Of a DNA stretch of 64,000 bases, positions 11,011 to 64,000 are shown piece after piece. Within the stretch, counting starts at the first letter, position 1. Every line of letters begins with the position of its first letter. The stretch spans positions 54,565 through 118,564 of the IMG/VR virus record IMGVR_UViG_3300011116_001048; one strand, written 5' to 3'. The stretch comes from a virus. Both the position numbers and the translations under genes were made by a program. The notes under the pieces were generated by a model. That model did not search any database and was not told the DNA's origin. It saw only the letters and a program-made list of their open reading frames with translations.

Positions 11011-11046
11011 TATAAGATATACTGATAGACCTTTAAGGAAATAATA

Positions 11047-11898: not shown

Positions 11899-11915
11899 AT
11901 GAAAGAAACATTTTT

Positions 11916-15191: not shown

Positions 15192-15197
15192 TTTATC

Positions 15198-15824: not shown

Positions 15825-15826
15825 AT

Positions 15827-17825: not shown

Positions 17826-17827
17826 TT

Positions 17828-18823
17828 ATGAAAAATGTTTTAATTACAGGCGGCGTTGGTTTTGTTGGTCACCATATGGTGAATTATTTATTACAAAATA
17901 GTGATGCAAATATTATTGTTATGGATAGATTGGATACTTCTGGTAATCTTAATCGATTAACAGAAATGACCAGCTATCAAAAAAATAAAAATCGTGTAAA
18001 TTTTGTTTGGCATGATTTTAAATCAGAAATTATTAAAAACGAAGTACTGGGAGCCATGTTAGGTAAACCAGATACTATACTACACGTCGGCGCAGGATCG
18101 CATGTTGACAGAAGTATTGAAGATCCATTATCCTTTGTTATGGATAATGTCGTAGGTACATGTAATGTTTTAAATTATGCAAGACAATTAGATAATTTAG
18201 AAAATATAGTATATTTTTCTACAGATGAAGTATTCGGCCCTGCTGCACCTGGCATCGCACATCATGAGTGGCATCATTATAATTCCGGCAATCCGTATTC
18301 TGCATCAAAGGCAGGAGGAGAAGAACTTTGTCTAGCATTCCACAATACGTATAAATTACCAGTTATGATATCGCATTGTATGAATATTTTTGGTGAACGA
18401 CAACACCCAGAGAAATTTATACCTTCTTGTATACGAAAAATATACAAAGGCGAAAAGGTAATAATTCACAGCAATAAAGATTTAACAAAAGCAGGAAGTA
18501 GATTTTATATTCACGCAAATAATGTGTGCTCTGCTGTGAACTTTATATTAAATAAAGGAACTCATGGAGACAAGTACAATATCGTTGGAGAAAAAGAATT
18601 AGATAATTATCAAGTTGCTTCTATTATCGCGGATATTCTTGGCAAACCATTAAATTATCAATTTGTTGATTTTCATAGTAGCAGACCTGGGCACGATTTA
18701 AGATATGCTCTAGACGGTTCAAAATTGGCAAAAATGGGCTGGAATTTAGAATGCACCGTAGAAAAATCATTAGAAGCTACCGTTAAATGGTCATTAGAAA
18801 ATCCTAAATGGATTGGAATGTAA
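17828..18823 (+). CDS. Nucleotide-sugar 4,6-dehydratase (RmlB-like SDR)
   Basis: A 331-residue extended SDR enzyme. GGVGFVGHH at residues 8-16 is the NAD site, GSHVDRSIEDP the RmlB-type substrate loop, FSTDEVFGP the Thr-Asp-Glu catalytic motif of 4,6-dehydratases, and YSASKAGGEE the Tyr-x3-Lys pair. The Asp-Glu after Thr indicates dehydratase rather than epimerase chemistry. It would convert an NDP-hexose to the 4-keto-6-deoxy sugar, the precursor of 6-deoxyhexoses. GDP-mannose dehydratase normally has TSE here, so a dTDP- or similar NDP-glucose is more likely than GDP-mannose. Confidence 0.88.
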   Translation: MKNVLITGGVGFVGHHMVNYLLQNSDANIIVMDRLDTSGNLNRLTEMTSYQKNKNRVNFVWHDFKSEIIKNEVLGAMLGKPDTILHVGAGSHVDRSIEDPLSFVMDNVVGTCNVLNYARQLDNLENIVYFSTDEVFGPAAPGIAHHEWHHYNSGNPYSASKAGGEELCLAFHNTYKLPVMISHCMNIFGERQHPEKFIPSCIRKIYKGEKVIIHSNKDLTKAGSRFYIHANNVCSAVNFILNKGTHGDKYNIVGEKELDNYQVASIIADILGKPLNYQFVDFHSSRPGHDLRYALDGSKLAKMGWNLECTVEKSLEATVKWSLENPKWIGM

Positions 18824-45472: not shown

Positions 45473-46978
45473 TTATTGGCTCATACGTTTCTTTAATGTG
45501 TCTAGTGCCATCTTGTGGGCTTGACCATGTGTCATCTTAACACCTTGTTCTTGTGCTTGAGTCATCAATTTAATAACTTGGTGTTTCACAAAAGTTTCAG
45601 GATCACTGACTTTTTCTTGGGGTGTATCGGTTTCTGGTTCTAGATCTTCCACATCAGAAGAGTCTCCTACTCCGTATACTCCAGTAGGATTTTCACGACT
45701 GGCTATGTAATGAGCCATTCTTTTTTTGCCTTTTTTAGTTAAACCGTATGCAGAAGTTTCTATACTGACTTCTTCGTTAAACATTTTCATAAAGTGATTG
45801 TAGTATTGTTCTCGTAAACTCATTTCTGTTCCTTTTGTTTGTGTTTGTAACCAACTCATAAGTTGTGGATCATTACCGTAAGCGGCTTTAAACCCCTCAA
45901 CTCCACGTTCTTTTAGATCTTTTTCAGCCTGTAAAATTGTTTCTTGACTTAACTGACCAGTTTGGCGTTCTGTTTGTGTTTGTGCTTGTCTTAGCTTTTG
46001 ATATTGGGCGTTTGCTTGTGCTTGTTTGGCTTGTTGGCTGGTTCCCCATTCTTTGGTGGCTTTTTCTTGTTGGGCTGCACGACCTGCTTTACCGTAACCC
46101 AGTGTTTCTTTGGCCAGATCAATAGGTCCCATTTCTTCTGTTTCTTGTCTTGCTGTTATGGTTTTAGGGTCTGTTTTATCACCAACCCATTGAACACCAT
46201 CTGATCCTATACTCATTTTATTACCAAAATAACGGCCTAATTGCCAGCCGGTTTCAGCAGCAGTCGCCATAGCAGCAGGAACTCCTAACACTCTTCCTGC
46301 AATTCCTAATCCTCTACCTAAACCGCTTTTTCCCAAAGTCTGTATTGCTTTAGCAACGGGTTCTACCAGTTTGGTTTTAGCTAATTTAGATGTAGCATCA
46401 GTAACAACAGAGCCAACTTTTTGTCCTGCTTTATACCCTGTTAAATATCCACCAACAGATCCAACAATAGATCCAGCAACACCACCAAGAGCTTCCTGCC
46501 ATGAACCTTCTCCTGCTCCTATTGATCGTGCAAGAGCAGCACCAGCAGCCTCAGAAGGTTTAGCAGCAAGATTCATCAATCCTACACCACCAACAGCTCC
46601 AGGAATGCTTGGTTTGGCTCCGGTCAACCATCCACCACCAACTTGTCCTGCAGCCTCTATACCAGTTAGTGCCCAAGGATTAACCACACCCATGGCTTGT
46701 GCTGTTTTTTTAGCAGCCAATCCTGTTCCAACTTCTACTACTCCTTGAACTGCTGGAGCCAATTTTGATGGGAGATTAAGAGTGTCTTTTAGGTCAGGAG
46801 ATAAAGGTTCTGTTTTTGGTTTGGGGGCTAAAGCAGGATTAGTATTTCTTGTGTAATCTGGTTTTGGTTTAAACTTAGCGACAACATCTAAAACGGTGTC
46901 AACGACGCTTTCGTTTACTGATTTTTTAAAAATATTTCTGATGATATCAGTTTCGTCGTTTACAGGCAAGTTGTGCAT
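45473..46978 (-). CDS. Large Gly/Ala-rich hypothetical protein, possible virion protein
   Basis: A 501-residue protein. I choose the ATG at 46978 (MHNLPVNDETDIIRNIF), because AAAGGA lies upstream and a perfect late promoter is about 23 bases further. The centre is Gly/Ala-rich (LAAKPSEAAGAALARSIGAG, AGSIVGSVGGYLTGYKAGQK), like membrane-active or glycine-zipper segments. Then come Gln-rich helices and a C-terminal part with SAYGLTKKGKKRMAHYIASR. It could be an internal or ejected virion protein. No known domain is evident. Confidence 0.7.
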   Translation of the reverse strand: MHNLPVNDETDIIRNIFKKSVNESVVDTVLDVVAKFKPKPDYTRNTNPALAPKPKTEPLSPDLKDTLNLPSKLAPAVQGVVEVGTGLAAKKTAQAMGVVNPWALTGIEAAGQVGGGWLTGAKPSIPGAVGGVGLMNLAAKPSEAAGAALARSIGAGEGSWQEALGGVAGSIVGSVGGYLTGYKAGQKVGSVVTDATSKLAKTKLVEPVAKAIQTLGKSGLGRGLGIAGRVLGVPAAMATAAETGWQLGRYFGNKMSIGSDGVQWVGDKTDPKTITARQETEEMGPIDLAKETLGYGKAGRAAQQEKATKEWGTSQQAKQAQANAQYQKLRQAQTQTERQTGQLSQETILQAEKDLKERGVEGFKAAYGNDPQLMSWLQTQTKGTEMSLREQYYNHFMKMFNEEVSIETSAYGLTKKGKKRMAHYIASRENPTGVYGVGDSSDVEDLEPETDTPQEKVSDPETFVKHQVIKLMTQAQEQGVKMTHGQAHKMALDTLKKRMSQ

Positions 46979-51764: not shown

Positions 51765-52292
51765 TTAGATCTTTTCTGCTTTTTCAGCTTCTCCTTGTTC
51801 TGGTTTATCCGAATAACGAACAATTTTAGCGTCCATTTTATATAAACCAGTTTCAGCTTCAATTACATTTATTACTAAAGCTAAATGATCACCACCTAAA
51901 ATATCTTCTACCCCATCAGTTACTTTGAATCCTTTGCTTAAATCGTGGTCTGGAGTGGTTCCAAAGGTACCACCGAAACGTTTAAGAGTAAAATGATGTG
52001 GTTTATTGATCTCAACCTGTGTTTTGTTTGTAAAATCAAAATCCAGACCTGCCAGATTAAGCTTTACTCTCATTAAAGAAAGAGCTGCACGAGGATCTAG
52101 ATATTCACGACTAGTAAACGCGTGTAAAAATGCTTGTAATTTTTGTACTTGTGAATCAATTTGAATCTGGTGGATTCCTACATCATCTGAAGCAGAACGA
52201 GTAGAATCTGGTACTGGCCATTGACCTAAAGCACCACCATCAACGTATTCTGATTCCATTAATTGTTGTTTTAGTTGTTTGTAACTTTTCAT
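51765..52292 (-). CDS. Putative capsid-targeted or structural protein, 175 aa
   Basis: The N-terminus MKSYKQLKQQLMESEYVDGG resembles the capsid-targeting leaders of T4 internal proteins (MKTYQEFIAEA type); LME-S could be cleaved by the prohead protease after Glu 13. The body (FLHAFTSREYLDPRAALSLM, FDFTNKTQVEINKPHHFTLK) is alpha/beta without a known domain. GATAAATA lies upstream and CGGAG precedes the ATG. A packaged or structural protein is inferred, not shown. Confidence 0.65.
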   Translation of the reverse strand: MKSYKQLKQQLMESEYVDGGALGQWPVPDSTRSASDDVGIHQIQIDSQVQKLQAFLHAFTSREYLDPRAALSLMRVKLNLAGLDFDFTNKTQVEINKPHHFTLKRFGGTFGTTPDHDLSKGFKVTDGVEDILGGDHLALVINVIEAETGLYKMDAKIVRYSDKPEQGEAEKAEKI

Positions 52293-52306
52293 TTAAGTCT
52301 CCGTAT

Positions 52307-52314
52307 TATTTATC
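52307..52314 (-). promoter_or_regulatory. Late-type promoter GATAAATA (minus strand)
   Basis: The plus strand reads TATTTATC. The element lies 14 bases before the start at 52292, with CGGAGA between as ribosome-binding site. It has one mismatch to the T4 late consensus. Confidence 0.5.
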
Positions 52315-52328
52315 TGTTTTTAAATGTC

Positions 52329-53813
52329 TTATTTTTTAGTCTTTTTGTTGTTTTTGCCTTTACGCATGGCTAAAACTTTAAAAGTGGCTGTTCGAAATTC
52401 TGCTTCTTCTTGCGAATCTAAACGTTCGTCGGTTTTGATTCGTTTAATATTTCCGCGTTTTTTCATTTTAGCGGCAATTTCGTCTCTTTTTTTTATTTCG
52501 GCTTTAGTCATCGTGCCTTTGTGGTCTTTATTTACCACTTCTTCGTTTATTTTGTTAAAAAATAACGACATTAGTTTATCTTTTAACAATAAATTTGCAT
52601 GTTCATTTATTCCTTGACCGGCTTTATTTGCTTCTATGGCACGAAGTTGAGCAAGGGCTTTATTTTTACTGGAATGAGTACCTAAAACTTTAGTTTTAGT
52701 TTTATTCATCACTATCCATTTTCCGTCTTTATGCTCAATAACCTCATTTAATAGTTCTAGTTCGGTGTTAACATCTTCTTTAACTGACCGCCAAGAACCT
52801 CCTTTTTTCTTGTAACATTTAGCTGCCCAAGCGTTAGCATACGCACTGGGATACACATCAAATTTAGATTTTGCTTGTTTTTTGCACGCTGACCATTTTT
52901 CTGGATCGTTTGGTTTGTTCTTTTCTAAAATAAGAATTTTAGTGTTTTCACAAATTATTTTTACAATTTCTGTAGGATCTATAACCTTTTTTACTTCATT
53001 ATTTTCAAATAACGCAAAATTATTTTTAAAAATTCCCAGAGTACCAAACCAATCACCTGTTGTTGTTTCAATTAAAGCTTTCTTGCCTCTAAATGGTGTT
53101 AAATCTAACTCAGTAAAATCCATACATTCTTTAGTTAGCTGACTTACAGATTTTCCACGTTCCCACATCCGACACGACCAATAACGAGCCTTGGTTCGTG
53201 GACCGGGATTTTCACAGCGATGACGAGCACGAAAATTCTTGCGGCGACCAGGATCGTCCCGTTTAATTTCCATGTTTGGATCGCCAAAACGAACAGTAAT
53301 TACATTACCTTTTTCATTTTTTACACGAACAGCAAACTTTTTTGGACCACCGGGAGTACGAAATGGTTTACCTAATGGAGCATCTTCGTTCAGATATTTC
53401 TTTTGAAGTTTATCTTTAATTTTTTTTACTAGTTGTTTGTCTTTATTGTGTTCACAACCACAATCTTCGTTTGTTGATTCCATGTGTTCGTTCACTTTCT
53501 TTTTCTTTTCTACTCCAGTTTCAACAAATATGGGTTTTTTTCCTTTTTTACCTGTTCCTTTTTCGCCTCTACCTGCTTCCGATTGCGCTGCTCGTTTACG
53601 TTTCACAAAATTTGCAATTCCTTTTTTTCCTAATTTTTTTGCTTTTTGTTTAGATAAACAAGCAGAATATGGTTGTCCTTCTTTGGCATCTCCACATTTA
53701 CCTGCTCTTTTCCCAGCACTGTTATATCTATCCCAACCCGGTTCTTTGGTTGCAGATTCTTTTTTAAACCATTTACCTAAACCTGATTTTGCATAAATTT
53801 CATTTAATCTCAT
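52329..53813 (-). CDS. Basic multi-module protein with DUF5872-like and KWSACK repeats
   Basis: A 494-residue, very basic protein. The first part (KEPGWDRYNSAGKRAGKCGD, then YSACLSKQKAKKLGKK) is DUF5872-like. The middle has CENPGPRTKARYWSCRMWERG, and a later part has DPEKWSACKKQAKSKFDVYP followed by SAYANAWAAKCYKKKGG. Similar short Cys/Trp/Lys modules occur in T4-like phages without known role. It starts MRLNEIYAKSG, where LNE could be a prohead-protease site. It overlaps the upstream GAF-like gene by ATGA. DNA or RNA binding inside the capsid is a plausible inference. Confidence 0.7.
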   Translation of the reverse strand: MRLNEIYAKSGLGKWFKKESATKEPGWDRYNSAGKRAGKCGDAKEGQPYSACLSKQKAKKLGKKGIANFVKRKRAAQSEAGRGEKGTGKKGKKPIFVETGVEKKKKVNEHMESTNEDCGCEHNKDKQLVKKIKDKLQKKYLNEDAPLGKPFRTPGGPKKFAVRVKNEKGNVITVRFGDPNMEIKRDDPGRRKNFRARHRCENPGPRTKARYWSCRMWERGKSVSQLTKECMDFTELDLTPFRGKKALIETTTGDWFGTLGIFKNNFALFENNEVKKVIDPTEIVKIICENTKILILEKNKPNDPEKWSACKKQAKSKFDVYPSAYANAWAAKCYKKKGGSWRSVKEDVNTELELLNEVIEHKDGKWIVMNKTKTKVLGTHSSKNKALAQLRAIEANKAGQGINEHANLLLKDKLMSLFFNKINEEVVNKDHKGTMTKAEIKKRDEIAAKMKKRGNIKRIKTDERLDSQEEAEFRTATFKVLAMRKGKNNKKTKK

Positions 53814-54439
53814 TTGTGTTGTTGTCCTAATTGCGCCGTAATTTGGTCACGGATTTTCATCAGTTGGCCGGAAGAATAGATCTCGTCTATACGTTCAGCT
53901 TTGAGACTACTACACCACTGAACCATTAAAAACCCGGTTAATTGATTCATTATTCGTATAGGAAGTACAGCAAAAGCTTCTACGTTTCGTGATTCCAAGT
54001 ATTGTTTTAAATACGAATTTTTCAGATCTACTGTATAATGAATTTTAGAATCGTCTGCTAAAACCAAATTTAACAAAGGAATAAACATTGAACACAACAG
54101 CCCTTTAATTCTGTTTGCGTCAGAGTCTATGCCTTTTTCTAATGATTCATGAGTTAAACTAAACTTTCTCATAGACACACCATCCATAAAATATTCGCCG
54201 TTATGAAATTGAATTATTTGTGATCTGGCCGCATCGGTTAATACTCGAAGCTCTGTAAGGACTTCATGGATTTCACTATGTACCATTATAAAATTATCAT
54301 TTTTACCAAATTCAATTTTATGGTTTTGCCAGTATTTGTACCCGCCTATAATTAATCCACATATTAGGGCCGCATAAACACTATACGATTCAAATACTTT
54401 TATAACATCTTGGTAAAAATTGTAATGACCGTCGATCAT
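53810..54439 (-). CDS. Membrane-anchored GAF-like domain protein
   Basis: A 209-residue protein with an N-terminal membrane span (SVYAALICGLIIGGYKYW) and a cytoplasmic domain resembling GAF: LTELRVLTDAARSQIIQFHN, GEYFMDGVSMRKFSLTHES, and near the end AFAVLPIRIMNQLTGFLMVQ. GAF domains bind small ligands or mediate dimerisation in signalling. In a phage this may sense a host metabolite or bind a membrane partner. It lies between two large unknown genes and overlaps the next by ATGA. Confidence 0.65.
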   Translation of the reverse strand: MIDGHYNFYQDVIKVFESYSVYAALICGLIIGGYKYWQNHKIEFGKNDNFIMVHSEIHEVLTELRVLTDAARSQIIQFHNGEYFMDGVSMRKFSLTHESLEKGIDSDANRIKGLLCSMFIPLLNLVLADDSKIHYTVDLKNSYLKQYLESRNVEAFAVLPIRIMNQLTGFLMVQWCSSLKAERIDEIYSSGQLMKIRDQITAQLGQQHK

Positions 54440-54449
54440 GGAATGCCTT

Positions 54450-56831
54450 TTATTTTTTATTTTTCTTTTTCTTTAACTGTACTTCTAGATAAGGAATGCT
54501 TGCTCTACCAACGAAAGGAAAATTGGAACCAGGAGTGTCTTTTAGTAGCTTTTCGACTACTTCTGGGGTGCCTTCAAATCCAGCGCCATGATCCTCATTC
54601 ATGCTGCGGTTTTTAGATTTGGGTAATACTCGTAGATTGCTATCGCCGTTATTTTTTGGATTGCCGTCTTTATGGTCTACATCTTTACCGTCACCTTTGC
54701 GGACTTTGCCCTTTTTCTCCATTTTACGACGAGCTAATACACGTTTGCTGCGGTTAGCACGTTGTTCCGGTTTGCTGTGATAATTATCGTATTCTTTACG
54801 GTAATTTCTAGCTTCAGTTAACCCGAATTCATTTTCCATTATGATGAGAGCATCCAACATGTCAATATTTCCTGCTTTGATATTTTCTATCAAAGAATCG
54901 TTCAGTAAAATATATTGTTCCAGGAGTGCGTCTGCACCTTTTTCTAGAACATTTTGTTCATTGCCTTCGGGATCGTAATTTTTTTGAACCGGAATTTGAA
55001 TTTGTTCTTCTGAATTGGTATTTGCATTAAAAATGATTGTATTGCTTGCATCATTATCACCCGCATAAAAATCAGAATATTCTATTGGCATTTTAAATGT
55101 AGCATCTGAAATTCCTAGTTCAAATGCTTGTAAAAACGCTGCAGGAGTATTAATTTGATTTTTAATAGATTCAATGTCACCGATAACAGATAAAGTGTTT
55201 TCCATTAGTGGTGTCATTTTTTGGAACAAGGTTTGTAAAAATCCACCACTAGAATTTGGAGTTTGAATAAATTTTAAAATTAAATTTGTATCTTTAGATT
55301 TGGCCAATGTTAAAGCAAAATTTTGATCTAAAGGAATTGCTTTAGCGTTAGTTCCATCTTTCTTTGCAGTAAACATCATCTGGGCAGAACCGGTTTTACC
55401 ACCAAATTTAATATTGCCTGTGAGAGCTTCTAATAATATAGCAGCTTTTAGGTCGTAATTTTCATTAATATAATTTTCTACTAATTCACCGGCTCGATTT
55501 AACAACGTCTTTTGGGAGTTTTGTGTAGTTTCGGCTCTCCATTTTTCGCGTGCCAAAGCAATAGATCCCTCACGAGAATTTTGTAGTGCTAAAGGTATAG
55601 ATTGGCTTGAAAACGTTTGTCGTAATTGTTGAATAAAATCGTTTACAAACATATCAAAAGAACCAACAATCTGTTGTAACGGCATCATAGCATTTATTGC
55701 ATTAAAAATAATACCGGCTTCCCCTTTACTAATAGGGCGTATTTCTTCTCCAATTTTAATACAAACTCCTAAAGATTGTCCTTTTGTTTTACCGATAACT
55801 GTGGCAGCTGGTGCTGATTCTTTTACGCCCATCTGTGACCATACTTTAGTTGTTTTTACAACAGGATCGGATTTAGTAAAAGTCATAGTGGCAGCAGCAG
55901 GAAATGCAGAATAAATTTCTTTAGCAAATCTTTGCATTGCGTCACCAAACGTTCTGCTTGTATTAATAAATTGTTGATATTCGGTTGACGGTTGTTTTCC
56001 AGATAAAGAATTTAGTGCATCACCAACCCCTGCAACAAATTGAGGAACTGTGTGGTCCCATTCAGGGAAAGTTGAATCTGGATTAGTCATTTCCTTTCCG
56101 TCTTTTGGTGTTCTTAAATGTGGAGGAGTTGGTGTTTCCGTTTTTTCAGATTGTTTTGGTTGCATTTGTTTAGATTTATTTTGTTTTGTGGTTTCTTCTT
56201 TTTCGCGCTCAACACGACCACCAAGCAATCTGATTGATGTTTTGGTGTTCATAAAATTATCTAAACTAGAATAATATGTAAGATCGCGTTTAGTTACATT
56301 ACCTTTATCTTGTTTTTTGGTTTTTCCTTTTAACAGCGTGTGGTGATTTGGATTGTAATCGTGTTTGGTTATAATTTCAATTTTATTTAATTTTGTGTTT
56401 TTAACAATTACAACATTTGCCAGACCAGCTTGCTTTTCTTGTTTACGTGCTTCGCGTTTGCGATCTCTTTCACGATCTTTAGAATCTACTTCCGGGCGCA
56501 TTTTTTGTTTTTCGCGTTTTAACGCAGTTCGTTTAGATTCTGCTTCTGAAAGCAAAGAATTTAAAAATGCATCATTAATTTGTTGGATTTTATCACCAAA
56601 CATAGATTCGCGCATTTGTAGCCCTTTAGCTTTTGCCTGATACAAATCTCTGGCTAGTTCTGCTTTCAATCGTCCTTTTCGTATAGCGGTTTCTCTATCA
56701 AAATTGGCTATTTTTTTTCTGTTTTCAAATTTTTGTTTTTGATACGGAATATTAAGTTCCCACAACAGAATAGATTCTGTTAGAAAGTCAGCGTACTCGG
56801 ATTCATTGAACCAGGAAGGGGTATTAGACAT
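54450..56831 (-). CDS. Large putative encapsidated protein with C-terminal HNH-like domain
   Basis: A 793-residue protein. The N-terminus (MSNTPSWFNESEYADFLTES) has a T4-type capsid-targeting pattern with cleavage expected after LTE. A long charged helical region (to about 180), a Lys/Gln/Pro-rich linker and an alpha/beta body follow. Near the end NYHSKPEQRANRSKRVLARR, then GDGKDVDHKDGNPKNNGDSN and LRVLPKSKNRSM, match an HNH-type motif with the DVDHKDG His. CATAAATA lies 12 bases upstream. A packaged nuclease injected with DNA is the suggested model; processing is unproven. Confidence 0.75.
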   Translation of the reverse strand: MSNTPSWFNESEYADFLTESILLWELNIPYQKQKFENRKKIANFDRETAIRKGRLKAELARDLYQAKAKGLQMRESMFGDKIQQINDAFLNSLLSEAESKRTALKREKQKMRPEVDSKDRERDRKREARKQEKQAGLANVVIVKNTKLNKIEIITKHDYNPNHHTLLKGKTKKQDKGNVTKRDLTYYSSLDNFMNTKTSIRLLGGRVEREKEETTKQNKSKQMQPKQSEKTETPTPPHLRTPKDGKEMTNPDSTFPEWDHTVPQFVAGVGDALNSLSGKQPSTEYQQFINTSRTFGDAMQRFAKEIYSAFPAAATMTFTKSDPVVKTTKVWSQMGVKESAPAATVIGKTKGQSLGVCIKIGEEIRPISKGEAGIIFNAINAMMPLQQIVGSFDMFVNDFIQQLRQTFSSQSIPLALQNSREGSIALAREKWRAETTQNSQKTLLNRAGELVENYINENYDLKAAILLEALTGNIKFGGKTGSAQMMFTAKKDGTNAKAIPLDQNFALTLAKSKDTNLILKFIQTPNSSGGFLQTLFQKMTPLMENTLSVIGDIESIKNQINTPAAFLQAFELGISDATFKMPIEYSDFYAGDNDASNTIIFNANTNSEEQIQIPVQKNYDPEGNEQNVLEKGADALLEQYILLNDSLIENIKAGNIDMLDALIIMENEFGLTEARNYRKEYDNYHSKPEQRANRSKRVLARRKMEKKGKVRKGDGKDVDHKDGNPKNNGDSNLRVLPKSKNRSMNEDHGAGFEGTPEVVEKLLKDTPGSNFPFVGRASIPYLEVQLKKKKNKK

Positions 56832-56842
56832 AAGCGTACTTT

Positions 56843-56850
56843 TATTTATG
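56843..56850 (-). promoter_or_regulatory. Late-type promoter CATAAATA (minus strand)
   Basis: The plus strand reads TATTTATG. The element is 11 bases from the start at 56831 and just beyond the stop of the upstream gene. It has one mismatch to TATAAATA. Confidence 0.5.
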
Positions 56851-56855
56851 GATTT

Positions 56856-57227
56856 TTACGGTTTGTCTTGAATTTGTGGTTGAATTCGCTCTACAGTAAA
56901 TCCTTTAAAAGTTTTTCTTTTTCCAGAAATTACATCGTGCATAGCCGAAGAATTTATCTTTCTATCACGACAAAATCCTTCAAAATTGTCTGTAATATAC
57001 TTAATTCCGTCCTTGTCTGTAAAAATAAAGATTGTGCGTTTCTTTTTAGTGTGAGAAAATTCTATAGTTTTTCGTACTTTTGATTCCCAAACCCATTCTG
57101 CTCCTACTTTTTTGAATTCTCCACCGTATTTTTCTGTGAATTTAGTTCTGTTTAGCTGACTTTTAGAGTTTCCATTAAAAAGAGCCCATTCTCTGGTATT
57201 ACGTCTGTTTACATTGTTTAGGTTCAT
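56856..57227 (-). CDS. Small DNA-binding protein, homing-endonuclease-associated type
   Basis: A 123-residue basic protein. The C-terminal half, IFIFTDKDGIKYITDNFEGF followed by CRDRKINSSAMHDVISGKRK and TFKGFTVERI, has the NUMOD-like helix-turn-helix pattern found next to homing nucleases: a Gly-turn, FCR helix, then SGK...KGF. No nuclease motif is visible, so this is probably a DNA-binding remnant or regulator. It overlaps the upstream PD-(D/E)XK gene by 29 bases, with GGAGA before ATG. Confidence 0.6.
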   Translation of the reverse strand: MNLNNVNRRNTREWALFNGNSKSQLNRTKFTEKYGGEFKKVGAEWVWESKVRKTIEFSHTKKKRTIFIFTDKDGIKYITDNFEGFCRDRKINSSAMHDVISGKRKTFKGFTVERIQPQIQDKP

Positions 57228-57858
57228 ATTCGTCTCTCCATTCTTTAATTGCTACAGCAAGATCTTTTTTATAATTTTTTGTTTGTTCTACAAACGATTG
57301 GACTGTTCCGTCATCACAACTGATTAATATTACAATTTGTGGTATTTTTTCGCCCGTTCGTTCTTCCCACATACACGCGTACGCTGTCGCTTGCAGGAAA
57401 TAATTGTGAATATCGTCTTTACGTTTAGGTTTAGTGCTGCCTTTAAAATCTATTACACTGGGAATCTGATCGTATTCTGCAATACAATCTACTCTTCCCG
57501 CTATACGCAACGGTTTACTCCACAAAAATCCTTCTACTGCTCGTATATTATCAATTTTATCAATTTTACTTTGAAGCTGATTAAACAGGTCTAGAGTGTA
57601 AGGATCTTGATTAGTTTTAAATTCGGGATTATTTTTAATGTAATTTTCAATTAAAGAATGCAGTTTGGTGCCACGATTTCGTGTACGAATCGCTTCTTTA
57701 GGATTATTTTTACGCCATTCCGCAAAAAATTGATTTTTTTTCCAACCAACAACTGTGGTTACGCTGGGAAAACGCCCGTCCGGAGTCTGGTAAAACCCGT
57801 CGATTCGTTCGGCTTGTGGTAGATCTGTTAGTTTATGATTAAAAAGTTTAACACTCAT
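57199..57858 (-). CDS. PD-(D/E)XK nuclease (RecB/Cas4-like exonuclease)
   Basis: A 219-residue protein with the nuclease core: an N-terminal FPSVTTVVGWKKNQFFAEWR, a RGTKLHSLIENYI helix, AGRVDCIAEYDQIPSVIDFK with the paired Asp and DFK catalytic residues, and NYFLQATAYACMWEE, the QxxxY motif of RecB-family exonucleases. Homologous single-domain nucleases occur in T4-like marine phages and may act in DNA recombination or host-DNA breakdown. No ribosome-binding site is visible before the ATG at 57858, and an A/T-rich region separates it from a divergent gene. Confidence 0.85.
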   Translation of the reverse strand: MSVKLFNHKLTDLPQAERIDGFYQTPDGRFPSVTTVVGWKKNQFFAEWRKNNPKEAIRTRNRGTKLHSLIENYIKNNPEFKTNQDPYTLDLFNQLQSKIDKIDNIRAVEGFLWSKPLRIAGRVDCIAEYDQIPSVIDFKGSTKPKRKDDIHNYFLQATAYACMWEERTGEKIPQIVILISCDDGTVQSFVEQTKNYKKDLAVAIKEWRDEYEPKQCKQT

Positions 57859-57891
57859 AATATATACATATATCTATACGAGAAAAACACT

Positions 57892-58140
57892 ATGAAAGCA
57901 ATTACTCCAGCATCATACCAAAAAGTATTTCAAATAACGCCGAGCACCAATACCGTTGCTCCTCATCGTGGGCTGCTATTCACGTATAACTCTGCTGCTA
58001 ATTCTGTTGGTTTAAAGTTTGCCGATGGAACTGGTGTTACTTTAGCTAATTTAGGAGCATCTGGTAGTTCTGACGTATTTCCAATTATAGCAAATCAGGT
58101 TATTTCTGCTAGCGGATTAACCGCTTACGGATTAATTTAA
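57892..58140 (+). CDS. Small virion-like protein, 82 aa
   Basis: A protein starting MKAITPASYQKVFQITPSTN and continuing with beta-strand sequence (HRGLLFTYNSAANSVGLKFA, VTLANLGASGSSDVFPIIAN). This type of small beta-rich protein, with DGTGVTL, occurs among phage head-decoration and spike-base proteins. It is the only plus-strand gene in a minus-strand block and ends base-to-base with the converging neighbour. I start at ATG 57892; a longer in-frame reading reaches into the divergent gene and is unlikely. Virion association is inferred. Confidence 0.55.
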   Translation: MKAITPASYQKVFQITPSTNTVAPHRGLLFTYNSAANSVGLKFADGTGVTLANLGASGSSDVFPIIANQVISASGLTAYGLI

Positions 58141-59745
58141 TCAGCTGCCTAACATTTTCTTGAAGTAACCGGTTACGTCAGAGCCTGTAGAACTGAATAC
58201 TCGGTACTGTTTTTTTCCATATACTACTCTACGAACCCCTCTAATAGAAGACGCAAACACGTCTACTTTTTTGCCGTCTTGTAGATAAGAAACTTTATAT
58301 TTTTGTTTCTTTAATCGGCGTTGCAGCGATTCTTTGGGAGACAGTTTTCCTTCGGAAACCATAATTTGTTGGGTCATCCATCTACGTAGGAATGGATCAA
58401 ACGCTCCAATACGTTTTTTTGCGGCGTATCTCTCTCCGGCAGCAAGTTGATCTTGATACACTGATTGCGGTAACGACGGCGACGCACCGCTGGTAAAAAA
58501 ATCTGGTATTTGTGGTCTTGCCTTTCCCGGTTTAACTTTAGATTTGCTTTTTCCACTACTTCCATCACTTTTTCCCGTTGTTGCAGCCGCAGCAGCAACC
58601 GCTGCGGCTGTAGCTACTGCTGTTGCTTTTGCTCTTGCTGTGTCTGTAATTTTATCAGCAGTTTGATCTACCGTTTGATCTGCAGCTTTAGCCGCATCCT
58701 TGGCCACATCCTTGGCCGCATCCTTGGCCGCATCCTTGGCGGTATTTTGGGGGCTGGCCGTAGTTTTTCCGGTAACTAGATCTGGTGTTTTTGTTTCCTC
58801 CGGTGCCGCAATACCAGCAGGAGGTGCACCCGCTTCAGGTGCTTTTGGAGCCTTTGGAGAAACAATATCTTGTACAGTTTGTTTACCAGATTTTCCTGCT
58901 GGAGGTGCTGGGGCAGCAGGCTTTTGTGTAACTTTTATTTTTGAAACATCGGATTTAGGTAATTCTGGTGTTCTGGTTGGTGCTTCTATGCTGGCAGGAG
59001 GTCTTGGTGTTGGGCTGTACTCTACACCAGGCTTTGCTTCGGCTGCTCCGAGCTGTAATTTTGCCGCAGCAATAAACGTGTAAAGTGGCTTTTTTAATAG
59101 ATCCATAGCAGTTTTCTTTGCTGCTTGTGTTGCGGTTTCTATTCCAGTTTTAAGTGGACTTGGTGGAGTTGGTTCGGATCTGAGACCGCGTTCATGACGA
59201 GCCAACCACGCTATATCGTCAGCACTTCTTGCACTTGCAGGAGTGTCTCGTATTTGTTGTGCAATTTCGTCTGCTGCTTTTGCGTGTGCAGATTGTATTT
59301 CACTGGTTGAGACTTGTCTTCCTTTTTTTTCTGCTTCTATTTTCAGTTCTGATATTTTTTGAGTGGCTTTTTCTGCGGCTCTTGCGGCTGCGGCTTTTGA
59401 TACTCCTTCTACCCCTGCAACAACAGGTTCAACCTGTTCGGCCAGAACTACAGCACAATTTTTTATTATTTTTTCCGCAATTAAAGAAATATCTTTGGAA
59501 GTAATCTCGTCTTCTGATGTTTCTGTTATATTTGGAATACGGAACGGGCTACCAGCACTCTCGTTTAACACACCAAAATGCACACCCATTCCGTAACAAA
59601 TTATGGTTTGAAACTCGTTTGCTATTTCAGTAAATTCTGTCAGTGTAGGATAACAACCATGCTCTGTTTTAAAGAGCATGGCTGCTTCGGTTAGTAGCGA
59701 TTTAATGTACTGTTTTTCTGAAACTTCTAAAAGAGTATTGGGCAT
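58141..59745 (-). CDS. Ala/Lys/Pro-rich putative internal head protein
   Basis: A 534-residue protein. It begins MPNTLLEVSEKQYIKSLLTE followed by AA, with LLTE fitting a prohead-protease leader. A long Ala-rich region has AKDAAKDAAKDVAKDAAKAA (histone H1-like) and Pro-Ala-rich linkers, and the C-terminus is a compact basic domain (VSYLQDGKKVDVFASSIRGV). CTAAATA ends five bases before the ATG, so its message may be nearly leaderless. A DNA-binding or packaged protein is suggested by composition; no enzyme motif is present. Confidence 0.7.
   Translation of the reverse strand: MPNTLLEVSEKQYIKSLLTEAAMLFKTEHGCYPTLTEFTEIANEFQTIICYGMGVHFGVLNESAGSPFRIPNITETSEDEITSKDISLIAEKIIKNCAVVLAEQVEPVVAGVEGVSKAAAARAAEKATQKISELKIEAEKKGRQVSTSEIQSAHAKAADEIAQQIRDTPASARSADDIAWLARHERGLRSEPTPPSPLKTGIETATQAAKKTAMDLLKKPLYTFIAAAKLQLGAAEAKPGVEYSPTPRPPASIEAPTRTPELPKSDVSKIKVTQKPAAPAPPAGKSGKQTVQDIVSPKAPKAPEAGAPPAGIAAPEETKTPDLVTGKTTASPQNTAKDAAKDAAKDVAKDAAKAADQTVDQTADKITDTARAKATAVATAAAVAAAAATTGKSDGSSGKSKSKVKPGKARPQIPDFFTSGASPSLPQSVYQDQLAAGERYAAKKRIGAFDPFLRRWMTQQIMVSEGKLSPKESLQRRLKKQKYKVSYLQDGKKVDVFASSIRGVRRVVYGKKQYRVFSSTGSDVTGYFKKMLGS
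58691..58738. repeat. Four tandem 12-bp repeats (Ala-Lys-Asp-Ala codons)
   Basis: Units of 12 bases (gccgcatccttg on the plus strand, one copy with A for G) start at 58691, 58703, 58715 and 58727. On the minus strand they encode the repeated AKDA/AKDV tetrapeptide of the 534-residue protein. This is a likely site of length variation. Confidence 0.9.
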
Positions 59746-59759
59746 ACTCTTATTTAGTA

Positions 59760-60326
59760 TTACTTTGCTGGCAGCACAAATCGAATAGGCCAGTAACGGG
59801 TACCGTCGCCGTTTCCAAACAATATCCAGTCTTCCACACGAAGAGGATCGTACGGCCTAAGCGTACCGTCTGCCAGATTTACGGTAAAAACACCACCACC
59901 AGTGCCCAACTTACGCCAAACAGCCAGAGAAATAGGCGTTTGGTGTGAATCGGAAATAATGGTGTATCCCTGATCAGCCAGCCAACGGTACATGGCAGGA
60001 GCAATACCCTGCCCAACGTAATCGTTGTGAACACGAATACGATCCATAGTGTACACCTTTCGGCTCCACTGGAACGCTCCGGGCGGAACAGGCGCACTCA
60101 CAAGACGGGCAACCAGCACAACATCACCGTTGTTATCGGTGGCCATAACCAGCACACCATTTCCTTGCAGTGTACGAATGTGCTTCAGTTCAATAGCCAG
60201 ACCGTTCAGGTCACGAGTACCCCAGTGCTTGGTAACAGTACCGGGGGTTTGATCAAACTCCTTGATTTCCTTGTTAAAAGAGGCGAGATGGTCACTATCG
60301 ATTGTAATAGTAGGGGTAAGAATCAT
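59760..60326 (-). CDS. GNAT-like acetyltransferase
   Basis: A 188-residue protein starting MILTPTITIDSDHLASFNKE at 60326. The central part has GNGVLVMATDNNGDVVLVAR (strands), MDRIRVHNDYVGQGIAPAMY (the V..Y.G.G.A...Y acetyl-CoA-binding motif with a Gly-x-Gly turn) and YTIISDSHQTPISLAVWRKL, as in GNAT enzymes. The substrate is unknown; phage GNATs can modify host proteins early in infection. The start lacks a ribosome-binding site and lies six bases downstream of a sigma70-type -10 box. Confidence 0.75.
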   Translation of the reverse strand: MILTPTITIDSDHLASFNKEIKEFDQTPGTVTKHWGTRDLNGLAIELKHIRTLQGNGVLVMATDNNGDVVLVARLVSAPVPPGAFQWSRKVYTMDRIRVHNDYVGQGIAPAMYRWLADQGYTIISDSHQTPISLAVWRKLGTGGGVFTVNLADGTLRPYDPLRVEDWILFGNGDGTRYWPIRFVLPAK

Positions 60327-60332
60327 AATGGT

Positions 60333-60360
60333 AATATACACCACAGAATAAAAATGTCAA
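60333..60360 (-). promoter_or_regulatory. Early sigma70-type promoter (minus strand), probably leaderless
   Basis: On the minus strand, TTGACA (60360-60355), 16 bases and TATATT (60338-60333) precede the ATG at 60326 by six bases. The spacer TTTTTATTCTGTGGTG shares the TTCTGTGG block with the rnh promoter at 3076-3103, so the two may be related copies. Confidence 0.65.
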
Positions 60361-60378
60361 GAATGAAGTATAAATTTC

Positions 60379-60386
60379 CATAAATA
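60379..60386 (+). promoter_or_regulatory. Late-type promoter CATAAATA before candidate small RNA
   Basis: CATAAATA has one mismatch to the T4 late element and lies about 100 bases upstream of a strong terminator, with no open reading frame between. It would start a transcript near 60393, divergent from the GNAT promoter. Confidence 0.45.
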
Positions 60387-60392
60387 ATGGTG

Positions 60393-60516
60393 ATCGGGCT
60401 GAGTTGGTCGTAGACAGTCCTCAAGCGAACTACGCTACTCATGCTAAAAAGGGAACTTCGCTACCTTTCGGTCGTCATAGGGCAGGGGAGAGTTCGCGCT
60501 CTCTCCTGCTTTTTTT
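60393..60516 (+). ncRNA. Candidate small non-coding RNA, about 124 nt
   Basis: The segment lies between CATAAATA (60379-60386) and a strong terminator hairpin and contains no credible open reading frame. It has two copies of a 12-base motif, GAACTACGCTAC (60427-60438) and GAACTTCGCTAC (60453-60464), differing by one base, and short possible stems such as AAAGG/CCTTT around the second copy. It lacks tRNA features. The promoter, repeats and terminator together make a small RNA plausible; expression and exact ends are unproven. Confidence 0.45.
60482..60516 (+). terminator. Strong rho-independent terminator
   Basis: An 11-bp stem GCAGGGGAGAG with CTCTCTCCTGC (one G-U pair) around the loop TTCGCG (60493-60498), followed by seven T. 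It ends transcription on the plus strand and its T-run overlaps the next late promoter. Confidence 0.92.
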
Positions 60517-60523
60517 ATAAATA
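60516..60523 (+). promoter_or_regulatory. Perfect late promoter TATAAATA overlapping a terminator
   Basis: TATAAATA begins at the last T of the terminator and is 31 bases before the ATG at 60555. The end of one unit and the start of the next are thus fused into a single short control segment. Confidence 0.65.
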
Positions 60524-60554
60524 CAGGTAAGAGTATATAGCAAGGAATACCAAA

Positions 60555-61490
60555 ATGGATATAGAAAATATTAAAAAGAATATTAAACAATCAATTGTAC
60601 AAAACTTTATAGCAGAAGCCAAGATGAAAGACGGCCCGGGCAAGACCAGCCAACGCCCAAAAAGTTGGGACAAAGGCATCAAGGCCGGTTCGGAGAAACG
60701 CAAGATGCGTGAACAAGGCAAGCGTGAAGCCCGCGATATGCAAGAGGGAGTCGGTGATTTTTTTGGTACAGATAGAGAAGGAAACACCCGAGGATTAGGT
60801 AGAAATTATGGTGTAGAACACGAGCCTGATGTGGTATCGGGAGCAGAAATGACTCATATTCAACACTTTGAGCAAGTTGATCCGCGAGATGTTAGTAAAG
60901 GATTTCAGTACAGAAAAGGTTCAAAACTAGCAAGACACGGTATTCCTGTTGCACTGTTAAACACTTCAACTCTGCTACCAAAATCAGGAGCCGAAGCAGA
61001 ATTTGCAAAACTACCTAATGCGCTAAAATATCTGCAAGACGTTAAAAATTACCATTGGGATTCGTACAGCCGAAACGTTGATGCAAGACGAAGTGGCCTT
61101 AAAGGAGCAGGAGCCAATGTGCGATACCACACTCAGATGGGTATTGCTACAAAAGCTTTAATAGAAAAACTCAGAGGCGGTCAACAAACTAGTAGTTTAA
61201 CAGAAGGCGAATCTTGGGGACCAGAGTTTGCTGGTTCGTCTCAAGACGATGCCACCGCTCGTGCTTACGAAGAACAAAGCCGAGAAGCAGACATGGAACC
61301 TACTCCCAAGACTCATAAAGATGTTATAAAAGAACTGTCTGCCGCACACGAAAAACGGTCTGCCGCACATGAAGCAGCGTTAAGTCATGCGTATACCGCA
61401 GCAACTATGGGTAAAAGGAAACTAACTCCAGAGCAAATGAGAGACGTGTATCATAAACACTACAGAAGTAGTATGGGTAGCCCAGACTGA
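60555..61490 (+). CDS. Putative internal head protein with T4 IP-type leader
   Basis: A 311-residue, charged protein. Its N-terminus MDIENIKKNIKQSIVQNFIA, then EAKMKDG, contains FIAEA, as in the capsid-targeting leaders of T4 internal proteins (EFIAEA), with cleavage expected after Glu 21. The first 60 residues after this are very basic; later come VEHEPDVVSGAEMTHIQHFE and helical LSAAHEKRSAAHEAALSHAY. A perfect late promoter lies upstream and AAGGAA precedes the ATG. A packaged, injected protein is the leading interpretation. Confidence 0.72.
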   Translation: MDIENIKKNIKQSIVQNFIAEAKMKDGPGKTSQRPKSWDKGIKAGSEKRKMREQGKREARDMQEGVGDFFGTDREGNTRGLGRNYGVEHEPDVVSGAEMTHIQHFEQVDPRDVSKGFQYRKGSKLARHGIPVALLNTSTLLPKSGAEAEFAKLPNALKYLQDVKNYHWDSYSRNVDARRSGLKGAGANVRYHTQMGIATKALIEKLRGGQQTSSLTEGESWGPEFAGSSQDDATARAYEEQSREADMEPTPKTHKDVIKELSAAHEKRSAAHEAALSHAYTAATMGKRKLTPEQMRDVYHKHYRSSMGSPD

Positions 61491-61717: not shown

Positions 61718-62017
61718 TTATCGCCACCGACGACCTTGCATATTATTGCCTTGATCGTAGCGTCCGCGTAGACTTTTGGGTTGGCCGCGTTTGATCTTGT
61801 TCATCAGTTCGCTCCAGCGTCCGCCGGTAGCCTTATCTGGCGTCAAAGTGTAGTCTGCTCCCAATGCGGGCGTACATCCGGCCCATGACTTCTTCACGGT
61901 TCCTTCCGCCTTGCACTTGGGACATGGAAGAGTGGTGGGCAGGTCACGATCCTTCATCATATGGACTTCTTCCCATAACTTCTTACACTTATCACACTCA
62001 TAGTTGTAGGTTGGCAT
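61718..62017 (-). CDS. FmdB-type zinc-ribbon protein
   Basis: A 99-residue protein starting MPTYNYECDKCKKLWEEVHM followed by LPCPKCKAEG, two CxxC pairs of the FmdB-like zinc ribbon. The remainder is polar and ends in an Arg/Gly-rich tail (SLRGRYDQGNNMQGRRWR). FmdB-like proteins are small, probably regulatory or nucleic-acid binding, and occur in T4-like phages. CATAAATA ends five bases before the ATG and there is no ribosome-binding site, again implying a leaderless message. Confidence 0.8.
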   Translation of the reverse strand: MPTYNYECDKCKKLWEEVHMMKDRDLPTTLPCPKCKAEGTVKKSWAGCTPALGADYTLTPDKATGGRWSELMNKIKRGQPKSLRGRYDQGNNMQGRRWR

Positions 62018-62022
62018 GGAAG

Positions 62023-62030
62023 TATTTATG
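62023..62030 (-). promoter_or_regulatory. Late-type promoter CATAAATA (minus strand)
   Basis: The plus strand reads TATTTATG. The element is separated from the ATG at 62017 by five bases (CTTCC on the minus strand), so RNA would begin at or beside the initiator. A weak sigma70-like -10 (TATACT on minus, 62058-62063) lies further upstream. Confidence 0.5.
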
Positions 62031-62177
62031 GGACTTTGGGGATGCGTCTGATAACCTAGTATACTTCACCCTGTCCGATAAGCAAATGGTATCTCCGATA
62101 TTCCGATTCCCGTATCTGGATTCTGTGAATACAAAATGTATAATACACAATATACTATCAACTTTCTGAACTTTATT

Positions 62178-62789
62178 TCAGCCGTAGAAGCGGGACAGGG
62201 CAGCGTACACCTGGGACGGAATGGTGGCGTGGGCCTTGGCCTTGAAGTCGCTGGGCATCATCTCCACCATTCGCCACGACCTGTACGGGTTCCGTCCGCT
62301 CCGCCAGCATCCTGTGTCACGCATCAGATGGTGAGAATAAATGTACAGGTTGGCGTACCGGGCGTATGCAGCCACATCTATAGGCAAGCCCTTGGCTTTG
62401 GCAAGACGCATGGCTCGTATTTCTGCATCACGCTCAAACGCCATCACACGGGCGAACGCCTTGCGTAGCACCGCTGGGGCTGGAGCCTTGCCACGGTGAA
62501 GGTAGTCGTGGACAATACAGGCGGCTGCGTTGTCGGCGTTGTACACATGGGCGGGCTGTTCCACCCATTGACGGAAGTGGGCGTACTCGTGGAGGAGTGT
62601 GCCAAGCCAATGGGGATGGCCCCGTGCCACCCTGATGATCCGGCGACGGTCGCAGAAGAAGCCCTCTGCCCGCCAGCCACCTCCGTTCACTTCCCGGCCC
62701 CGACCAAAGCAAAGACGGAACCCATAGGAATGGAGTTCCGCCTTCACTTGCTCAACGAACTTTCGTACTTCGGATTTCAGTTTCCCCAT
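62178..62789 (-). CDS. HExxH zinc metallopeptidase-like protein
   Basis: A 203-residue protein with LGTLLHEYAHFRQWVEQ, the HExxH zinc motif, and a following Asp/Glu-rich helix (VMAFERDAEIRAMRLAKAKG) that could hold the third ligand. The start MGKLKSEVRKFVEQVKAELH is helical and FFCDRRRIIRVARGH forms strands before the motif, a plan similar to phage-type SprT-like or putative peptidases. Base composition is clearly more GC-rich than most of the window. Substrate unknown. Confidence 0.75.
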   Translation of the reverse strand: MGKLKSEVRKFVEQVKAELHSYGFRLCFGRGREVNGGGWRAEGFFCDRRRIIRVARGHPHWLGTLLHEYAHFRQWVEQPAHVYNADNAAACIVHDYLHRGKAPAPAVLRKAFARVMAFERDAEIRAMRLAKAKGLPIDVAAYARYANLYIYSHHLMRDTGCWRSGRNPYRSWRMVEMMPSDFKAKAHATIPSQVYAALSRFYG

Positions 62790-62804
62790 TCTGAACCCTC
62801 CGTA

Positions 62805-64000
62805 TTATGTATGCTTTGCCACCGCCTCAACCATGCGGTTCACAAGACTACGGCTGACGATCTTGCGGGACAGGCTCTTGATGAACTGCGACTTGAGCCG
62901 GGTGTAGTTGGTGTTGCTCAAGTCCAAATCCTCGTAGGCATCCGTTTCCTGCTTGCGGGCGATACGGATGGCGAACACAGAGCCGAAGCCAAGGCCGTCC
63001 CCAGCCACCTTGCTGCCGTCGTGGGTGTACACCACCGGGAGAGCAGACAGGTAGTACTCGTCGTTCCAATGCTTGCCAAGAGCATCACCAGCAGGATCGT
63101 CCTTCAGGTAGTACTTGTTGGCATCACGAACCACCTTGCCGTCCGGGGTAGCCAGCGTGTAGCCGGGGATGATGTCGTTGGGCGTGTTGTTGCCCGACAG
63201 GTACAGCATCATGGTGTTGCAGCCCGTTTCGTCCATCAGATACGAGGCCAGCACATTGGTGCTGATGTTGTTGCGGAGGCTGTACGACGCACCCGTGCGA
63301 GGGTTGGTCAGACGAGTGAACCGATCACCGCTACCGTAGTAGTGGTTGTCCAGCGGCGAACTGCTGGTGCTGCCGTCCGTCACCACCACCACATTCATAA
63401 TCTCCGCACGGTGCTTCTTGCGGAACTCCTTGACCATCTGCACCGATGCAACGAGCGAATGGTCGAGCGGAGTGTCGCCCAGCGAGAGCCAATACGGGAA
63501 CGACGGAGCGTGGAGGCTGTAGTTGGGCTTGCTGGGGTTCATGTTGTACGCCAGCATCCACAACTTCTCCATCGCATCCTTGTAGGTCGCACCGTTCATG
63601 GTGCTGCTGGCGAAGTTGTACAGGAAGAACGGCGAGTGCGTTGCCACATTGGGCTTGCTGCTGTTGGTGATGAACCCCTTCGCCAAGTCCTCGAACTTGG
63701 TGGCCTCCTGCTCGTCCTGCATCGTCCTACGATAATCGTAGTAGTCACCGTAGTACTTGTCGCTGGGCTGGTTGCTGCTGAAAGCGTACACATCGAATGG
63801 CACACCGATGCGACGGAAGAACGAGGTGAGCGTGTACATCTGCTTCACCACATTCAGGATCACGCCACCCATAGAACCCGACCAATCCAGCAGCAGAATG
63901 AACCCGTGGTTCTTGCCGTTGGGCTTGATGGTGAAGTGCTTGAACAAGTCCTCGTTCCACTTGTAGGTGGACAGCAGGCCCATGTCCAGCGTTCCCGACT
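62805..64000 (-). CDS. VWA-domain protein (partial, continues beyond the window)
   Basis: The frame is open to the window edge on the minus strand. The visible part begins (G)TLDMGLLSTYKWNEDLFKHF, then GFILLLDWSGSMGGVILNVV, the MIDAS motif DxSxS, VPFDVYAFSSN, and later MNVVVVTDGSTSSSP (second metal-site strand). It resembles the VWA proteins of T4-like cyanophages that are usually paired with a MoxR/CobS-like AAA ATPase, probably encoded just outside. About 398 residues are visible. It is GC-rich, like the metallopeptidase gene 15 bases downstream. Confidence 0.85.
   Translation of the reverse strand, partial: SGTLDMGLLSTYKWNEDLFKHFTIKPNGKNHGFILLLDWSGSMGGVILNVVKQMYTLTSFFRRIGVPFDVYAFSSNQPSDKYYGDYYDYRRTMQDEQEATKFEDLAKGFITNSSKPNVATHSPFFLYNFASSTMNGATYKDAMEKLWMLAYNMNPSKPNYSLHAPSFPYWLSLGDTPLDHSLVASVQMVKEFRKKHRAEIMNVVVVTDGSTSSSPLDNHYYGSGDRFTRLTNPRTGASYSLRNNISTNVLASYLMDETGCNTMMLYLSGNNTPNDIIPGYTLATPDGKVVRDANKYYLKDDPAGDALGKHWNDEYYLSALPVVYTHDGSKVAGDGLGFGSVFAIRIARKQETDAYEDLDLSNTNYTRLKSQFIKSLSRKIVSRSLVNRMVEAVAKHT

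What the first reader, a model, noticed from the sequence alone, without database searches (positions are those of the whole stretch)
51765..61490. Family of unknown proteins with T4-type capsid-targeting leaders: possible injected cargo
Seen: (L/I)xE sites near the N-termini of 51765 (QLMES), 52329 (LNE), 54450 (FLTES), 58141 (LLTEA) and 60555 (FIAEA). Known: T4 internal proteins and core proteins carry leaders such as EFIAEA and are cut after Glu by the prohead protease gp21. The bodies are basic, helical or Ala/Lys-rich, several genes have late-type promoters, and one carries an HNH-like domain. Inference: they are packaged in the head and injected with the DNA.
Basis: partly seen in the sequence, partly recalled or inferred. 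Interest (0 to 1): 0.85.

Follow-up and report, generated by a model that had tools for sequence, protein, structure and literature searches.

The report
Phage proteins with head-delivery address tags
Several unknown proteins of this T4-like aquatic phage start with short tags that match the ones phage T4 uses to load proteins into its head and inject them, and related phages put the same kind of tag on dozens of unrelated enzymes, including known counter-defence types, so the injected arsenal of such phages may be readable from sequence.

Summary
All five (L/I)xE sites are where stated. The loose motif is weak evidence (36 of 130 genes have it near the N-terminus). (L/I)xE[AS] is rarer: 9 of 130 genes, 4 of them among the 10 of this region (P=0.002, post hoc). 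T4-type late promoters precede 51765, 54450 and 60555.
Relatives make the reading strong. A sister genome carries an array of MKSFLQ(H/Y)(L/I)xE leaders, like T4's MKTYQEFIAE, on unrelated bodies. In viral contigs this leader gives at least 120 stretches with Glu at the cut site and 3 with Asp. It precedes 72 body clusters, including ADP-ribosyltransferase and anti-CBASS Acb1. The one such protein of cyanophage S-SM1 was detected in its virions by others.
Head packaging and cutting are likely for 54450, 58141 and 60555, probable for 51765, weak for 52329. Injection is inferred; no proteomics exists for this phage.

The parts
51765..52292 (-). 175-aa protein; leader MKSYKQLKQQLME|S
   Evidence: ORF; relatives keep QLMES/QLTED; AlphaFold places a helix at residues 4-13, then disorder, then a domain (mean pLDDT 61); NATAAATA 22 nt upstream
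52254..52292 (-). predicted leader of 51765, residues 1-13
   Evidence: inference from (L/I)xE site and MK[ST][FY] start
52329..53813 (-). 494-aa Lys-rich mosaic protein (PHROG 3684, 7595, 27331 segments); short leader MRLNE|I
   Evidence: KLNEV/RLNEV in relatives; weakest candidate
54450..56831 (-). 793-aa protein with C-terminal HNH module; leader ends YADFLTE|S
   Evidence: FLTES/FLAES in all relatives; NATAAATA 19 nt upstream
56775..56831 (-). predicted leader of 54450, residues 1-19
   Evidence: site score 10.9 with profile built from protease and capsid-protein sites
54609..54692 (-). HNH_3 domain of 54450, residues 714-741
   Evidence: Pfam PF13392 E=1.6e-6; H720, N732, N741 invariant in relatives
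58141..59745 (-). 534-aa Ala/Lys-rich protein; leader ends IKSLLTE|A; variable middle, conserved C-terminal ~100 aa
   Evidence: leader differs but LLTEA/LLNEA/ILTEA/LLNEG kept in relatives
59686..59745 (-). predicted leader of 58141, residues 1-20
   Evidence: site score 14.3
60555..61490 (+). 311-aa basic protein; leader ends VQNFIAE|A
   Evidence: first ~64 residues conserved, rest unrelated in L008-L010; TATAAATA 39 nt upstream
60555..60617 (+). predicted leader of 60555, residues 1-21
   Evidence: site score 9.9; relatives have FMEAA (one residue earlier) or FMAEA
60516..60523 (+). T4-type late promoter element TATAAATA upstream of 60555
45473..46978 (-).
   Evidence: TATAAATA 31 nt upstream

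Best explanation
These are non-homologous late proteins that carry short N-terminal capsid-targeting leaders of the phage T4 type. The leader takes the protein into the prohead core. The phage's gp21-type protease then cuts after the Glu of (L/I)xE, and the mature, mostly basic body stays in the head with the DNA. The body probably enters the host with the DNA, where 54450 could act as a nuclease and the others as DNA-bound or takeover factors. Shown here: protease, head operon, matching sites, late promoters, modularity. Inferred from T4: targeting, cutting, injection.
For: S77 protease E=1.2e-41 in the same genome, with its own leader EFITEAA, which is EFLTEAA/KFLTEAA in relatives. Portal, scaffold and major capsid protein of T4 type, with capsid-protein site YLVEA/YLTEA/YLIEA. 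T4 gp21 cuts after L/I-X-E and the first 10 residues of IPIII suffice for targeting (PMC9026906). Leaders kept while bodies change for 45473, 58141 and 60555. Sister genome G001 has an array MKSFLQ(H/Y)(L/I)xE on unrelated bodies, with Pfam methyltransferase, nucleotidyltransferase, DUF6321 and weak ART hits. Leader in viral contigs: at least 120 stretches with Glu, 3 with Asp. Among ORFs not selected by those patterns, 33 of 38 MK[ST][FY]xxx[LIVMF]x starts have E at residue 10. 183 of 188 leader loci hold homologues of genes of this phage or of T4-like S-SM1, and 98 of 233 leader genes have a late promoter element against 14.8 in shuffles. Cyanophage S-SM1's only MK-type leader protein is the GC190 cytidylyltransferase, MKKFSAFLNE|AERS, which was detected in its virions by mass spectrometry (PMC3037559).
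Against: No virion proteomics for this phage. The window leaders are mostly longer than, and different from, the MKxF type; only 51765 begins MKSY. Profile-scored sites conserved in both members of ortholog pairs are no commoner at N-termini than in internal windows. 60555's site shifts by one residue (FMEAA) in three relatives, and in L007 it lies behind 219 extra residues. 51765 is acidic. No body matched a family of T4 IPI-III or Alt.
Confidence: 0.72

Rival explanations
1. They are head-core or scaffold components, like T4 gp67, gp68 and gp22, that are targeted and cut by the protease but serve head assembly or DNA condensation and are not injected effectors.
For: Same sites would be used; basic Lys/Ala-rich low-complexity bodies. 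A variable protein with leader LTEA/LVKEA/LLNEA sits between protease and scaffold in the head operon.
Against: Bodies are swapped between near relatives, which is unusual for core scaffold parts; 54450 carries a conserved HNH module; leader bodies elsewhere include enzymes.
Confidence: 0.2
2. The (L/I)xE matches near N-termini are chance and the genes are ordinary unknown proteins.
For: The loose motif is in 36 of 130 genes; pairwise conservation scored by profile is not above internal windows. Applies best to 52329.
Against: Strict form is confined to the protease and three of these genes; Glu against Asp contrast in viral contigs; late promoters.
Confidence: 0.08

Closest known systems
T4 internal proteins IPI, IPII, IPIII with capsid targeting sequence
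   Same: Short N-terminal leader ending in (L/I)xE before a small residue, basic body, late expression, gp21-type protease in the genome; sister-genome leaders have the same length and layout as T4's (leader letters of T4 from own knowledge)
   Different: Bodies are larger and unrelated; window leaders are 5-23 residues and mostly not of the MKxF form
T4 Alt ADP-ribosyltransferase
   Same: Enzyme cargo with short protease-cut leader; leader-tagged ART-PolyVal proteins exist in relatives
   Different: Different ART clade; none of the window's five matches an ART family
Cyanophage core protein GC190 (cytidylyltransferase) of S-SM1
   Same: T4-type leader MKKFSAFLNE|A; found in virions (PMC3037559)
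   Different: No homologue among the window's five proteins was seen
Head-packaged effectors fused to MuF or portal, and polyvalent proteins (PMC5512222, PMC9503650)
   Same: Same kinds of enzyme domains (ART, 2H phosphoesterase) proposed to be head-delivered
   Different: Those are inferred from fusion to head proteins or gene context; here the address is a cleavable short leader
phiKZ/SPN3US ejection proteins
   Same: Related protease cuts head cargo after Glu at a short motif
   Different: Motif there is S/A-x-E and propeptides are often over 100 residues (PMC5694885, PMC9026906)

Membership tests
T4-type capsid-targeted internal proteins | gp21-type S77 prohead protease encoded by the phage | tested here: met
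   PF03420 E=1.2e-41
T4-type capsid-targeted internal proteins | Protease specificity L/I-x-E seen in the phage's own capsid protein | tested here: met
   YLVEA in the major capsid protein; L/I at P3 nearly invariant in relatives; site identified by alignment, not by cutting
T4-type capsid-targeted internal proteins | Short N-terminal leader ending in (L/I)xE before a small residue | tested here: met
   54450, 58141, 60555 and 51765; 52329 only by the loose motif
T4-type capsid-targeted internal proteins | Site kept in relatives while the body may change | tested here: inconclusive
   Site kept for 58141 and 54450; body swaps for 58141, 60555, 45473; site shifted for 60555; no N-terminal excess genome-wide
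T4-type capsid-targeted internal proteins | Late expression | tested here: met
   NATAAATA upstream of 51765, 54450, 60555, 45473 and the capsid protein; promoter match only, no transcript data; not seen at 52329 or 58141
T4-type capsid-targeted internal proteins | Sequence homology of the body to IPI-III or Alt | tested here: not met
   No Pfam, PHROG or NCBIfam match to them; this lowers 'is an IP homologue', not 'works like one'
T4-type capsid-targeted internal proteins | Cleavage after the Glu and presence in the virion | not testable with these tools
   Needs proteomics of this uncultured phage or an expression system
T4-type capsid-targeted internal proteins | Injection into the host | not testable with these tools
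   Needs an infection experiment

The most novel reading that the evidence does not exclude
T4-like aquatic phages use the short capsid-targeting leader as a general, swappable address tag for a large injected arsenal of enzymes, including leader-tagged anti-CBASS Acb1, ADP-ribosyltransferases, kinase/zeta-toxin-like proteins, RNA ligase-like proteins and HNH proteins, so counter-defence acts from the moment of DNA entry and the arsenal can be listed from sequence alone.
Probability: 0.5. Interest if true: 0.85.

Novelty: new member of a known kind. Interest (0 to 1): 0.63.

Why it matters
What T4-like phages inject besides DNA is known well only for T4. If the leader is a dependable address, the head cargo of thousands of uncultured phages can be predicted from the first 10-20 residues, and proteins of unknown function become candidate early takeover or counter-defence factors. 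Two Acb1 proteins that follow directly on such leaders suggest anti-CBASS enzymes delivered ready-made. The Black review (PMC9026906) suggests that the leader lets T4-like phages load varied cargo; a survey like this was not found in the papers searched, but most subscription journals are not in that library.

Tried and rejected
No close relatives of the window region in cultured phage records; no protein match for 51765, 58141 or 60555, only module matches for 54450 and 52329. Structure prediction was poor for 54450 (pLDDT 41) and fair for 51765 (pLDDT 61); the fold search with the latter gave no hit at E<0.001. Conservation of profile-scored sites in ortholog pairs gave no N-terminal excess. 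In Pseudomonas phage PA5oct, with MS-marked proteins, N-terminal sites were modestly commoner in MS-detected proteins (8/92 against 6/287, P=0.007 at one of five thresholds tried), and its homologue of one leader family lacks the site; treated as weak. A second scan for the 60555 leader found only the three known relatives. No known RNA families in the region. The raw count of E at residue 10 in all loci (261 against 6 D) is biased by how loci were chosen, so the 33 of 38 figure is the fair one.

Full report
WHERE IT LIES. The window is bases 54565-118564 of a 118,564-base virus record. Reading the rest of the record gave 142 called ORFs. The head operon lies just outside the window: portal (PHROG 213), two small core-like genes, an S77 prohead protease (Pfam PF03420, E=1.2e-41), a 540-aa variable protein, a scaffold (PHROG 237) and a T4-type major capsid protein (PHROG 138). 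The phage is therefore T4-like in its head assembly.

THE OBSERVATION. All five (L/I)xE sites are present. The loose motif alone is common (36 of 130 genes). (L/I)xE followed by Ala or Ser within residues 3-26 occurs in nine genes, four of them among the ten of this region. The strictest form occurs in four: the protease itself (EFITEAA), 54450 (DFLTES), 58141 (SLLTEA) and 60555 (NFIAEA). The statistics are post hoc and should be read as supportive, not decisive. A profile made only from protease and capsid-protein sites of related contigs (74 sites, P3 almost always Leu or Ile) gave an N-terminal excess in this genome and a clearer one in the 146-kb relative G001.

PROTEASE SPECIFICITY. T4 gp21 cuts after L/I-x-E (PMC9026906). 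In about 80 related contigs the protease leader reads MKLITETVEQVEFLTEA or similar and the capsid-protein site reads YLVEA, YLTEA, YLIEA or similar. The window's sites fit this specificity.

LEADERS KEPT, BODIES CHANGED. 58141 has orthologues whose leaders differ almost completely but keep LLTEA, LLNEA, ILTEA or LLNEG; their middle parts are unrelated and the last ~100 residues are conserved. 60555 shares its first 64 residues with three relatives and nothing detectable after that. The slot between protease and scaffold holds variable proteins that start MKTKFTDLTEA, MKIKFSHLTEA, MKLQFKQLLNEA or MKLPINSLQTLVKEA. 54450, 51765 and 52329 keep related bodies in all relatives seen, so they give no swap evidence.

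THE SISTER ARRAY. G001 carries on one stretch (118733-131980) genes starting MKSFIQFLSESD, MKSFRNILREA, MKTFKQHLQEA, MKSFLQYISEA, MKSFLQHLQES, MKSFLHYLQEA, MKSFLQYITEQ and MKSFLQHITES on unrelated bodies. T4's IPIII leader is MKTYQEFIAE (own knowledge), of equal length. Pfam finds a methyltransferase (4e-9), a nucleotidyltransferase (9e-5), DUF6321 (4e-19) and a weak ART-PolyVal (0.002) among them. This genome's left end has one such gene (283-981, MKSFLTHLQEKS), and the record stops there.

THE LEADER AT LARGE. Nearly all hits are true ORF starts. A second, T4-like form MK[ST]FxE[FY] also hit the limit. In all loci the leader precedes 72 unrelated body clusters. Among ORFs not selected by the patterns, 33 of 38 have Glu at residue 10, against about 15% for MK-starting ORFs in general. 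Of 188 leader loci, 183 hold homologues of genes of this phage or of S-SM1, and 98 of 233 leader genes have NATAAATA within 80 nt upstream, against 14.8 in shuffles and 22% of other ORFs. Pfam hits among bodies include ART-PolyVal (9.7e-24), Acb1 anti-CBASS in two different contigs (4.2e-17 and 2.8e-23, starting right after the leader), AAA_33/zeta-toxin-like (1e-13), an S-adenosylmethionine lyase family (1.1e-17, one member, not traced), RNA ligase-like, methyltransferase and acetyltransferase families.

OUTSIDE EVIDENCE. In cyanophage S-SM1 the only MK-type leader protein is the GC190 cytidylyltransferase, MKKFSAFLNE|AERS. The S-SM1 virion proteome named this protein among nine newly detected virion proteins (PMC3037559). 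This is independent evidence that a leader-bearing enzyme is in a virion; cutting was not reported in the passages read.

MECHANISM AND LIMITS. By analogy with T4, the leader binds the core, the protease removes it, and the body remains with the DNA. Targeting, cutting and injection are inferences. Confidence differs: 54450, 58141 and 60555 good; 45473 and 51765 moderate; 52329 weak. Against: no excess of conserved profile sites in ortholog pairs, a one-residue site shift and a 219-residue N-terminal extension in relatives of 60555, and poor structural models.

NOVELTY. The principle is known from T4, and the Black review already suggests that leaders let T4-like phages load varied proteins (PMC9026906). 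Head delivery of ARTs and 2H proteins has been proposed from fusions and gene context (PMC9503650, PMC5512222). New here are the members in this phage and the breadth of leader-tagged enzymes, notably Acb1.

Noticed in passing
L179:8640-9134 and L281:2104-2574: Two different viral contigs carry Acb1 (anti-CBASS) domains directly behind T4-type leaders (MKTFLQYLSEA, MKTFREYLAEA), suggesting head-delivered anti-CBASS enzymes.
   Followed up: partly
L231:4752-5990, L280:4344-5267: Leader-tagged DUF6267 protein (E=1.2e-96), which looks ligase-like by eye, and a separate leader-tagged protein with a sub-threshold RNA_ligase match (E=1.7e-5).
   Followed up: no
L007:707-2275: A near-identical strain has the 60555 orthologue fused behind 219 extra residues, with FMAEA kept deep inside the protein.
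   Followed up: partly
window 8000-18000: GC drops to about 27% over a block of genes that look like sugar-transfer and methyltransferase genes, flanked by about 34-38% GC; likely an acquired island.
   Followed up: no
genome 6463-7455 and 2013-3068 (outside the window, L002): Adenylosuccinate synthase-like gene (below all curated cut-offs, also a partial PurZ match) and a GMP reductase over its cut-off.
   Followed up: partly
window 62001-64000: GC rises to 56%, far above the rest of the window; two minus-strand genes shared with the relative G001.
   Followed up: no
window 59760-60326: Conserved protein (about 80% identical in relatives) with a weak GNAT acetyltransferase match, lying between the 58141 and 60555 genes; it has no such leader.
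   Followed up: no
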